The notes under the pieces: model-generated | Database searches by the model: none | What the model was told of the DNA's origin: nothing | Seen by the model: the letters and a program-made list of their open reading frames with translations, nothing else | Position numbers and translations under genes: made by a program | In this document: piece after piece, positions 34,601 to 41,217 of the stretch | Layout: each line of letters opens with the position of its first letter | Numbering within the stretch: position 1 is the stretch's first letter | Assembly (NCBI RefSeq): GCF_025698545.1 | Contig: NC_068571.1 | Location: 41,945,733-42,009,732, forward strand | Direction: 5' to 3' | DNA length: 64,000 nucleotides | From: Gossypium raimondii | Lineage: Eukaryota; Streptophyta; Magnoliopsida; Malvales; Malvaceae

Positions 34601-35536
34601 CTTGAGTCCGTGTTTGGTTAATAGAGCCGAAAATATGACCATGAGATGGTATAAAATATAGAAAGAAATGTGAATAAACTATGAAAATAGAAAACAAACT
34701 ATCTAAATTATGATAATGTTTATAAAACTTGAATAACATGTGAAAAACCATGCAAGATTACGAGTTAAAAGTCTGAGGGCAAATTGATATGTGACCATAC
34801 GAAGTATACTCAAAAAAACATGTGAAACACAATGCAAATTACAAATTAAAGGCTCTGGGGTCGTGCGATTTTCTGAATATCTCATTCAATTTTAAGAATT
34901 TTATCCCATTGATAATATTATTAATAAACATTTATAAATTTTATTTTAAATCAAATATTTAAATGATTTTGCTCGTATATCTATATTCAAGTCAAATGAA
35001 ACCCATATCTTATTTTCTTACAAACTATTTTATTTGTTTGTTTTTAGTATTATTATCTTATCGATTGTAACTTAAGTTTTTTAATTTCAAAAGCAAAAAT
35101 ACAATTTATTCTTATAAAAAATTAAATAACGTATTTAATGGATTGATTTAGTATTTGTCCACAGGATCACAACCGTCCCAAATCCCAAAAAAAAACCCAA
35201 CCCTATTGAATGGTTGAACCGATCCGTTGGATTTGATTAAATAAATTATTTAAAAATTAAATAAATTATTTAAAATTAAAAACCAACCCTAACCAATGGT
35301 CAAACGTATCTTAAACCTTTCATTATTGTAGAAAAGCATGGGCAAAGAAGAGATCCCTCAAAACATCAAGCATACATTAAATTAGAAATGGGGTTCTATA
35401 CTCAAATCACAACCAAAAAAGAGAATGCTACTCAGATAGAAATATAATAATTTTAACATTGGACCAAAAGTTCTTACTTCCTAAACAAGAGAACATCATA
35501 CTAAAAAGAACAAAATCAACATTCAAGAACCGACCT
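34600..35536. other. Intergenic region and 3' flank of RPL32 copy 2
   Basis: No gene. From about 35310 the sequence is the 3' flank shared with copies 1 and 3 (cttaaacctttcattattgt). Before it, 35170-35300 has imperfect 'aaataaattatttaaa' repeats. Confidence 0.6.
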
Positions 35537-37177
35537 TCACTCGTCCTCCTGGCTGCGCAACCTAGCCAATTTGTTGGTAACGACAACATCCAACTGAGCC
35601 GCTCGCTCAACAATTTCCTTCCTCTTCTTCGTCGAAACATCATGTGCTATCTCAGCACAGTATGTCCTGATAATGCAGTAACAATCAATAACAATCTAGA
35701 AAAATGCTGATCAAAAGAAAGAGTTAAACATCATGTATTATACCTGTTGTGCATCATGAGAAGTTCTAGCTCTTGGACATTGTGCACGACGAATTTCTTA
35801 AACCCGTTGGGAAGATAGTGGCGAGTCTTCTTGTCTGAGCCATAACCGATGTTGGGCATCAAAGTGCATCCCTTGAACTTCCTCCTAACACGAGAGTCAA
35901 TACCCTTGGGCCTTCGCCAGTTTGTCTGGAAATATGTAAGATTGTTAACAATATTGCAGAGAGCTAGTTTGTGTGGTTTTGGCTAAACGAGACTTCAACT
36001 AACAAGGATGCACCAAATTGTAGTAATAAACATATTTAAAGACCATACGACATATAAGCTGAAACATGGCATCGGACATCAAAATAACACAGAAGCATGA
36101 AAGAAAGAGCTTAGTTTCAACACAGCACTGAAACAAAAAGAACAAAAATCCTTCTCCGCTACATCCTAACTAAATGTGAAGTCGCATAAGCATGTATCTA
36201 AAAGGTTTACCCTGCATAAAGCTATTAACACAAAAGGAAAAAAGAAACAAAAAGATTTCTAAACTTATGTTTGCTTCAGCTAGTTAAATAGAAAAGATAA
36301 TGTGAGGCTAGGCTCATATTGTGAGAAATAAGTATCAACAAGATGATTGACATTGCTTCTATACAAATATTATTCCACTTACAACCAATAAAACCAGAAT
36401 AACATATCAATAAAGCAATTTTCATATGCAATTCATAAGCTCACCTAAAGGAGCCATGTCTAATCTTCACGATCTTAATGGAGAATAGTCATCATTGAGC
36501 AAAACAAGCAGTCAGAAGTGTGCTAAATCTGCTAACATTCTCTCATTGAAGCACATTAAGTTAAATGAATTCAAACCCATTCTGGGAAACCCCAAAGATT
36601 GCACGTGCAGTGGCAGTCATGTTATATATCAACTTGAAAAAGTCTTAAAAAATAAATCTAGGCTTTTAGGCTTCTACCAGTAAAAAATCCACATTAAAAC
36701 AGCAGAAGAAAAAAAAACAGAGTCCACTAGCATCCTCTGTAATAATTTCTACAATGCAAACATGAATACACCATTGAAACGTCCTGAATTGATTATATTT
36801 TTTTCTTTTATATATATACAATTCTTTAACTACACATAAACCCTCTTCAAACCTCTAAATTGCGCTCGAACTCCCAGCAACAATGTCAACTGCGCTAGTA
36901 CTCAATCGGCATTCATATTTTTTCTTTGTAACCTCAATTCTCTATAGCATTTTAAGGGAAACCATACATATTCTTCAGCTAGGGCGATCCCCCAATTAAG
37001 ATATTAAGATCACAGTAAAAAAGAACCCAGTAATACCAATTACAGTAAAATACTATAAGAAAGATAAGAATTATCTTTTGCTATAACCTTGACGGAGATC
37101 TTGCGGTCACTTTGAGGCCTCTTGAACTTCTTAACACGCTTCTTCACAATCTTCTTCGACAGCAAAGGGACCGCCAT
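35537..37177 (-). CDS. RPL32: Ribosomal protein eL32, copy 2 (133 aa, three coding exons)
   Basis: Coding exons on the minus strand: 37177-37088, 35925-35744 and 35666-35537 (90, 182 and 130 nt), with the same phases and GT-AG junctions as copy 1. The protein ends RSQEDE where copy 1 has RSQENE and is otherwise the same as far as I can read. A 5' UTR exon ends at 37307 and its acceptor is 6 bases before the ATG. Intron 1 (35926-37087) aligns closely with copy 1, whereas exon 3, intron 2, exon 2 and the first bases of intron 1 are nearly identical to copy 3. Intact. Its promoter has the fullest set of ribosomal-protein motifs of the three, so it may be the main copy, though that is inference. 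Confidence 0.96.
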
Positions 37178-37341
37178 TTCCTCCTGTTTAACGAATCAAT
37201 TAAATGAAAGCCAATTCGCAAAGAGAAAGCATTTCGAAGATTCAAACGACAAATTAAACTCCGATATAACAAATTGAAGCAATAAATCGAATGAAAAATG
37301 AGTTACCTGATGGAAACACTAGGCTGGTGTGCGGCTGTTGT

Positions 37342-39690: not shown

Positions 39691-39781
39691 ACACTACAAA
39701 ACATAGGACCAAAAGTTCTTACTTCCTAGAAAAGAAAATATCATATTAAAAAGAACAAAATCAACATTCAAGAACCGACCT

Positions 39782-41217
39782 TCACTCGTCCTCCTGGCTG
39801 CGCAACCTAGCCAATTTGTTGGTAACGACAACATCCAACTGAGCCGCTCGCTCAACAATTTCCTTCCTCTTCTTCGTCGAAACATCATGTGCTATCTCAG
39901 CACAGTATGTCCTGATAATGCAGTAACAATCAATAACAATCTAGAAAAATGTTGATCAAAAGAAAGAGTTAAAACATCATGTATTATACCTGTGGTGCAT
40001 CATGAGAAGTTCTAGCTCTTGGACATTGTGCACGACGAATTTCTTAAACCCGTTGGGAAGATAGTGGCGAGTCTTCTTGTCTGAGCCATAACCGATGTTG
40101 GGCATCAAAGTGCATCCCTTGAACTTCCTCCTAACACGAGAGTCAATACCCTTGGGCCTTCGCCAGTTTGTCTGGAAATATGTAAGATTGTTAACAATAT
40201 TGCAGAGAGCTAGTTTAAGCGTTTTGGGCCTAAACAAGACTTTAACAAATCAGGATGCACCAAAATGTTGTCATAAACATATTTCAAGACCATACGATAC
40301 AAAAGTTAAAGCATGGCATTCGACATCCAAATAACACAGAAGCATGAATGTAAAGAGATCAGTTTGAACACACCACTGAAACAAAAAGAACAATCAACAT
40401 ACACCGTTACAAGTTACAAGTTACAAGTTAAGACTTAAAGGAGAAATAACCCAGGAGCTTGGATGACATCCTAACTAATTGTGAAGTTACATGAGCATGT
40501 ATTTAAAAGGTTTACACTGCATAAAATCTATTGACACTACAGAAAAAAGAAAGAATATTTCGCTACTTGTATTTGCTTCATCTAGATAAATCAAAAAAAT
40601 TATGTGAGGCTAGGCTCATATGGTATGAAATAAGTATCAATAAAAAGATCGACATTGCTTCTATACGAATATTATTCCACTTACAATCAATAAAACCAGA
40701 ATAACTTATCGATTAAGCAATTGCCACAAGCAATTCATATGTGCACCTAAAAGGAGCCTTAAGGATCGTAACAGTGAATAGTGATCATCGTAAAACACAA
40801 ACTGCAAGAAGTATGCTAATTCTGCTAACGTTTCTCACGTTGAAGCACATTTAAGTTAAATGAAGTCAAACCCGTTCAGCTGAACAGAACCCCAAATATT
40901 GCACATCCAGTGGCAGTCTTGCTATCCATCAACTTGAAAAATTCTAGACGAAAAAATCCTAGGCTTTTAGGCTTCTACCATTAATAAATCCACATTTAAA
41001 CAGCAGAGAAAAGAGAACTAAGGAGCCCACTAACATTTTAAGGGGAAAAAACACATTCTTCAGCTGGGGAGATCTACAAATTACAGTAAAATACTGTAAG
41101 ATAAGAGTTTTCTTTTGCTATAATAACCTTGACGGAGATCTTGCGGTCACTTTGTGGTCTCTTGAACTTCTTAACACGCTTCTTCACAATCTTCTTTGAC
41201 AGCAAAGGGACAGCCAT
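39782..41217 (-). CDS. RPL32: Ribosomal protein eL32, copy 3 (133 aa, three coding exons)
   Basis: Coding exons on the minus strand: 41217-41128, 40171-39990 and 39911-39782 (90, 182 and 130 nt), with correct GT-AG junctions. The predicted protein differs from copy 2 at one residue: LLMMHHR instead of LLMMHNR near the end of exon 2 (AAC to CAC). It ends RSQEDE. Intron 1 (40172-41127) is shorter and clearly more diverged than in copies 1 and 2, yet 39747-40216 is almost identical to copy 2. The 5' UTR exon ends at 41346 and the acceptor is 5 bases before the ATG. No lesion is seen, so it may still be expressed; the substituted Asn is otherwise conserved in the two sister copies. Confidence 0.95.

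What the first reader, a model, noticed from the sequence alone, without database searches (positions are those of the whole stretch)
35502..40216. Gene-conversion tract between RPL32 copies 2 and 3
35502-35970 (copy 2) and 39747-40216 (copy 3) differ at only three positions over about 470 bases, including intron 2 and the first part of intron 1. Immediately outside the tract the two copies are clearly different, and copy 2 instead aligns best with copy 1 in intron 1. Because copy 2 is about equally distant from copy 1 inside and outside the tract while copy 3 is anomalous only inside it, copy 2 was probably the donor. The sharp edges (a tatta/tacta difference on one side, tagttt|aagc on the other) make this an unusually clear case of concerted evolution in a ribosomal-protein family.
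Basis: seen in the sequence. Interest (0 to 1): 0.75.

Follow-up and report, generated by a model that had tools for sequence, protein, structure and literature searches.

The report
Recent gene conversion between RPL32 duplicates
Two neighbouring copies of a plant ribosomal-protein gene share a short, almost identical patch inside otherwise clearly different genes, which is the ordinary signature of one copy having recently been overwritten by the other.

Summary
Copy 2 (35502-35970) and copy 3 (39747-40216) differ by two substitutions and one 1-base indel over about 470 bp, against 13-18% just outside. The patch covers 3' UTR, exon 3, intron 2, exon 2 and the last 45 bp of intron 1. Noncoding sites alone carry it: 1/157 differences inside, 199/1254 outside (p = 5e-10); 0 of 20,000 permutations matched. 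One recent interlocus gene conversion between tandem eL32 (RPL32) genes is the best explanation.

At intron sites copies 1 and 2 differ 14/121 inside and 36/829 outside (p = 0.003). This leans towards copy 3 as donor, not firmly: noncoding sites with the 3' UTR are equivocal.

Comparable identical blocks are published for tandem RPL9 genes (PMC4679983), so this is a new example of a known kind. Only one assembly was available; assembly error was not tested.

The parts
35502..35970 (-). Shared tract in copy 2: 3' UTR, exon 3, intron 2, exon 2 and last 45 bp of intron 1; leaning recipient
   Evidence: 99.36% to copy 3, 2 mismatches + 1 gap; noncoding d23 1/157
39747..40216 (-). Shared tract in copy 3 (470 bp); leaning donor
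35537..37177 (-). RPL32 copy 2, intact 133-aa eL32; exons 37088-37177, 35744-35925, 35537-35666
   Evidence: conceptual CDS of 402 nt with GT-AG introns
39782..41217 (-). RPL32 copy 3, intact 133-aa eL32; exons 41128-41217, 39990-40171, 39782-39911
   Evidence: Asn90His unique among the 7 intact paralogues found in this genome
23257..24861 (-). RPL32 copy 1, intact 133-aa eL32, the comparison copy; exons 24772-24861, 23463-23644, 23257-23386
39994..39994 (-). Base that makes codon 90 His (CAC) in copy 3 instead of Asn (AAC); copy 2 equivalent 35748
   Evidence: the 5 PDB sequences shown as alignments have Asn
35306..35501 (.). 3' flank outside the tract, copy 2: copies 2 and 3 differ 25/191, copies 1 and 2 differ 9/196
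35971..37087 (.). Intron 1 outside the tract, copy 2: copies 2 and 3 differ 151/829, copies 1 and 2 differ 36/829 (three-way ungapped columns)

Best explanation
Three tandem eL32 (RPL32) genes arose by duplication, copy 3 splitting off first and copies 1 and 2 later. Recently a break or recombination intermediate in one of copies 2 and 3 was repaired using the other, about 4.2 kb away, as template. About 450-470 bp was replaced without changing gene number: 3' UTR, exon 3, intron 2, exon 2 and the end of intron 1. Shown: the patch, its edges, its presence at noncoding sites and its absence in the flanks. Inferred: the order of duplications (from divergence) and that repair synthesis was the process. 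Direction is unsettled, leaning copy 3 to copy 2 (my estimate about 0.65). One neutral difference in about 222 sites gives roughly 0.15-0.9 million years for assumed rates of 1.5e-8 to 2.6e-9, with wide error. The confidence below is for conversion between copies 2 and 3, whichever the direction.
For: Confined near-identity with abrupt edges. Noncoding d23 1/157 inside and 199/1254 outside, p = 5e-10; synonymous 0/65 in exons 2+3 against 4/19 in exon 1, p = 0.002. Permutations 0 of 20,000 for all sites and for noncoding sites. Intron 2 and part of intron 1 are included, so the template was genomic DNA. No fourth near-identical copy among the 10 matches of the genome search: after the three copies the next best is 86% on C11. 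Direction: intron d12 14/121 inside and 36/829 outside, p = 0.003, 0 of 709 overlapping outside windows reach 14.
Against: Only one assembly could be read, with no reads and no orthologues from other cottons, so assembly or polishing error was not excluded. For direction: noncoding sites including the 3' UTR are equivocal (15/156; 5.9% of windows have d12 as high, 0% have d13 as low), the 3' UTR alone favours copy 2 as donor (log-likelihood ratio -2.0), and the total is near zero at a synonymous/intron rate ratio of 2.5 and negative at 3. Exon 1 gives such a ratio of about 2.5 for copies 1 and 2, on only 19 synonymous sites (0.111 against 0.045).
Confidence: 0.9

Rival explanations
1. Same conversion, but with copy 2 as donor and copy 3 as recipient. 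This is a sub-case of the best explanation, not an exclusive rival.
For: Overall copy-1/copy-2 identity is similar inside (93.6%) and over the whole unit (91.5%); 3' UTR sites favour it (log-likelihood ratio -2.0); it wins if synonymous sites evolve at least 3 times faster than introns.
Against: Copy-1/copy-2 intron divergence is 14/121 inside and 36/829 outside (p = 0.003), and 0 of 709 outside windows are as high; log-likelihood ratio for introns +3.7 for copy 3 as donor. Inside the tract the synonymous/intron ratio is about 1.8 (my arithmetic: dS 0.231 over the corrected 14/121), in the range where copy 3 as donor wins.
Confidence: 0.32
2. Assembly or polishing artefact: reads of one copy were used to write part of the other.
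For: Single assembly; the segment is about 470 bp, within the size that short-read polishing or gap closure could affect. No read data were available.
Against: The two tracts differ at three positions including a codon change and an intron indel, the window has no N, and both copies have distinct flanks on each side. Overwriting roughly 16%-divergent sequence with another copy's, sparing three sites, would be unusual (judgement).
Confidence: 0.06
3. Purifying selection on exons 2 and 3 alone keeps the copies alike.
For: About two-thirds of the tract is coding for a very conserved protein.
Against: 0/65 synonymous and 1/157 noncoding differences inside; copy 1, with an equally conserved protein, differs from copy 2 at 13 of 65 synonymous sites.
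Confidence: 0.01
4. Copies 2 and 3 are the youngest duplicates, and copy 2's flanks were later overwritten by copy 1.
For: Would also give a mosaic copy 2.
Against: The overwriting would have to be younger than the tract divergence (2 substitutions in 469 bp), yet copies 1 and 2 differ at 65/1265 noncoding sites outside it.
Confidence: 0.01

Closest known systems
RPL9B/RPL9C tandem genes of Arabidopsis thaliana and A. lyrata, RPL9D/RPL9E of Eutrema salsugineum (Devis et al. 2015, PMC4679983; passages and one section read)
   Same: Tandem cytosolic ribosomal-protein genes 8-11 kb apart that share one block of identical sequence (with exon and intron in A. thaliana) while, in the two Arabidopsis species, coding sequence outside it is 96-97% identical and introns there show no significant identity; the authors read the blocks as characteristic of recent gene conversion
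   Different: There the identical blocks (-927 to +623, -167 to +245, -287 to +713 from the AUG) begin upstream of the gene. Here the block is in the 3' half and leaves promoter, exon 1 and most of intron 1 diverged. In Eutrema the rest of the pair is nearly identical too (four base differences in 3' exon and intron). Other gene family and other plant family.
Ribosomal-protein paralogues of Saccharomyces (Gao and Innan 2004, seen only as cited in PMC4679983)
   Same: Concerted evolution of duplicated ribosomal-protein genes
   Different: Yeasts; not compared here

Membership tests
Interlocus (ectopic) gene conversion tract | Confined near-identity between two paralogues, far above their flanks | tested here: met
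   99.36% inside; 13-18% different in adjacent flanks; 0 of 20,000 permutations
Interlocus (ectopic) gene conversion tract | Signal at sites free of coding constraint | tested here: met
   Noncoding 1/157 inside, 199/1254 outside; synonymous 0/65 inside
Interlocus (ectopic) gene conversion tract | Gene order and number unchanged, with old flanks on both sides | tested here: met
   Both flanks of copies 2 and 3 diverged and alignable on either side of the tract; that order was unchanged is inferred, no ancestor is at hand
Interlocus (ectopic) gene conversion tract | One-way transfer: recipient differs from its own orthologue in related species | not testable with these tools
   states that this genome has no relatives here
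Concerted evolution of a gene family | Paralogues within a species more alike than orthologues between species, repeatedly | not testable with these tools
   Only one species; one tract shown
eL32 / RPL32 gene family (PF01655) | Full-length eL32 protein encoded by intact exons | tested here: met
   PF01655 matches at all three copies over the curated cut-off; 133-aa products with GT-AG introns; copy 3's best PDB match E = 5.9e-78 over 1-133

The most novel reading that the evidence does not exclude
Conversion here repeatedly homogenises the 3' coding half of the RPL32 array while promoters and exon 1 drift apart, with the older copy 3 feeding the younger copy 2. Protein sequence would thus be kept uniform while regulation diverges.
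Probability: 0.1. Interest if true: 0.4.

Novelty: new member of a known kind. Interest (0 to 1): 0.22.

Why it matters
It is a clean, datable example of homogenisation in a plant ribosomal-protein array, useful as a test case for timing, direction and tract length in related cotton genomes. It also shows a common pitfall: inferring the donor from overall identity when much of the tract is constrained coding sequence.

Tried and rejected
Considered and rejected: coding constraint (noncoding and synonymous sites); cDNA-mediated conversion (introns are in the tract); a later copy-1-to-copy-2 overwrite of the flanks (flank divergence too high); an unseen fourth donor in this assembly (next best match 86%, whose counts are lower bounds).

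Tried without gain: using the C11 paralogue to root the flanks, because outside exons its alignment to the three copies is short and poor; exon 1 as a rate calibrator, with only about 19 synonymous sites; paper searches for RPL32 in Gossypium raimondii (6 papers, seen as listing only, mostly about chloroplast genomes), for ribosomal-protein gene conversion with tract lengths (0 papers), for an assembly of this size (0 papers), and on tandem-duplicate conversion (3 and 5 papers, listings only). One search (18 papers, 15 listed) gave PMC4679983; (7 papers) gave the two rate papers.

Rows left out: the noncoding 'outside' totals omit 36734-37043 (copy 2), where copy 3 has a large gap; one search uses all three-way ungapped noncoding columns of 35306-37450 instead (68, 211 and 203 differences in 1292 for pairs 1-2, 2-3 and 1-3), with a like result.

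Full report
What is there. The window lies on contig C7 of a 750,779,957-base genome in 281 contigs. On the minus strand stand three tandem genes encoding 133-aa eL32 (RPL32), all three intact with GT-AG introns: copy 1 at 23257-24861, copy 2 at 35537-37177 and copy 3 at 39782-41217. Four more intact paralogues were found, on C11, C9, C5 and C10. Decayed or partial copies were found on C8 and C10 and at C7:5.46 Mb.

Check of the observation. Copy 2 35502-35970 and copy 3 39747-40216 share 99.36% identity with two mismatches and one gap. The tract covers 35 bp of 3' UTR, exon 3 (130 bp), intron 2 (77 bp), exon 2 (182 bp) and the last 45 bp of intron 1. In windows of 100 ungapped columns, copies 2 and 3 differ at 0-2 sites inside the tract and at 9-28 in windows wholly outside it in the 3' flank and intron 1; windows that reach exon 1 or the 5' region differ at 5-16. 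Edges lie between 35501 and 35510 and between 35958 and 35971.

Is it more than constraint or chance? Noncoding sites give 1/157 differences inside and 199/1254 outside (Fisher p = 5e-10). Synonymous sites give 0/65 in exons 2+3 and 4/19 in exon 1 (p = 0.002). The longest run of variable sites at which copies 2 and 3 agree against copy 1 is 15; 20,000 permutations never exceeded 8. A mismatch-tolerant segment score was not matched in 20,000 permutations for all sites, nor for noncoding sites only. The same run test on the other pairs gives 375 of 20,000 for copies 1-2 (longest run 18, at 36412-36482) and 19,758 of 20,000 for copies 1-3. The permutations treat variable sites as exchangeable.

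Mechanism. A patch with old sequence on both sides is what templated repair between paralogues leaves. Introns in the patch mean that the template was DNA, not a cDNA. The nearest other genomic match is 86% (C11), so copies 2 and 3 are the only candidate partners seen in this assembly. That repair synthesis did this is inferred from the pattern.

Direction. That comparison mixes 312 bp of exon into the inside value. At introns, copies 1 and 2 differ 14/121 inside and 36/829 outside (p = 0.003). None of 709 overlapping outside windows of the same size reaches 14 (maximum 9), while copies 1 and 3 have 14 or fewer in 8.2% of them. Exons 2+3 give dS 0.231 for copies 1 and 2, against intron divergence of 0.045 outside. 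So inside the tract copy 2 is about as far from copy 1 as an older paralogue would be, which suggests that copy 3's sequence was written into copy 2. Against this: all noncoding sites together (15/156) sit between the two expectations (5.9% of 1137 windows as high for copies 1-2, 0% as low for copies 1-3), the 3' UTR favours the opposite direction (-2.0), and the combined log-likelihood ratio runs from +12.1 to -9.7 as the assumed synonymous/intron rate ratio goes from 1 to 4, being +0.2 at 2.5 and -3.3 at 3. By my arithmetic that ratio is about 1.8 inside the tract, and in exon 1 (19 synonymous sites) about 2.5, 1.6 and 1.2 for pairs 1-2, 1-3 and 2-3. I put copy 3 as donor at about 0.65.

Timing. 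One neutral difference in about 222 sites gives 0.87 My at 2.6e-9 and 0.15 My at 1.5e-8 per site per year, with 95% ranges of 0.022-4.8 and 0.004-0.84. The rates are assumed. Two cotton papers use 1.3e-8 for LTR elements (PMC4669482 and PMC6264596, passages read). The copy-1/copy-2 split is several-fold younger than the split of copy 3 (0.045 against 0.20-0.21 intron divergence).

Copy 3 alone has Asn90His, next to the exon 2/intron 2 junction; since copy 2 and the other five intact paralogues have Asn, the change is probably later than the conversion. The five PDB sequences printed as alignments, of 64 matched, have Asn (that they are plant proteins is recalled). Whether it matters is unknown.

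What is known. Devis et al. 2015 (PMC4679983; search passages and the section 'RPL9 Genes in the Brassicaceae' read) report tandem RPL9 genes that share blocks of identical sequence in A. thaliana, A. lyrata and E. salsugineum, which they call characteristic of recent gene conversion. The present case works the same way, in another gene family, with the block in the 3' half. It is a new member of a known kind. That this particular tract is unreported was not established.

Noticed in passing
window 37178-37450 and its counterparts: In the 5' UTR/promoter region copies 1 and 2 differ more (24/272) than in introns outside the tract (36/829, p = 0.008), and sites shared by pairs 1-2, 1-3 and 2-3 number 22, 11 and 11. 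Older mosaicism or different constraint is possible.
   Followed up: partly
window 36412-36482: Run of 18 variable sites at which copies 1 and 2 agree against copy 3; 375 of 20,000 permutations have a run as long. A faster-changing piece of copy 3 or a weak hint of copy-1/copy-2 exchange.
   Followed up: no
window 39994: Copy 3 encodes His at residue 90 where the six other intact paralogues found in the genome encode Asn.
   Followed up: partly
window 36734-37033: Copy 3 has only about 38 bp (41037-41074) where copy 2 has about 300 bp of intron 1, and copy 1 a similar length (BLAST block ends).
   Followed up: no
window 28198-30441: Broken Harbinger-like transposon remains between copies 1 and 2: Myb/SANT-like domain (PF12776) and DDE_Tnp_4 fragment (PF13359) on the minus strand; the element name is recalled.
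   Followed up: no
window 38321-38766: Imperfect inverted repeat between copies 2 and 3, arms of about 160 bp and about 70% alike by BLAST (one search reports 70-nt arms, 71%); MITE-like.
   Followed up: no
L012 (C10:2977500-2983500) 111-272: Exon-2-like eL32 fragment with a stop, about 68% identical in amino acids, some 3 kb from the intact C10 gene: a decayed former duplicate.
   Followed up: no
L013 (C8:46352000-46358000) 2709-2990: eL32 copy with exons 1 and 2 fused without intron 1 and many changed residues, probably a processed pseudogene.
   Followed up: no
window 17874-18818 and 44818-45714: Open frames matching PF04720 (PDDEXK_6) and PF04526 (DUF568).
   Followed up: no
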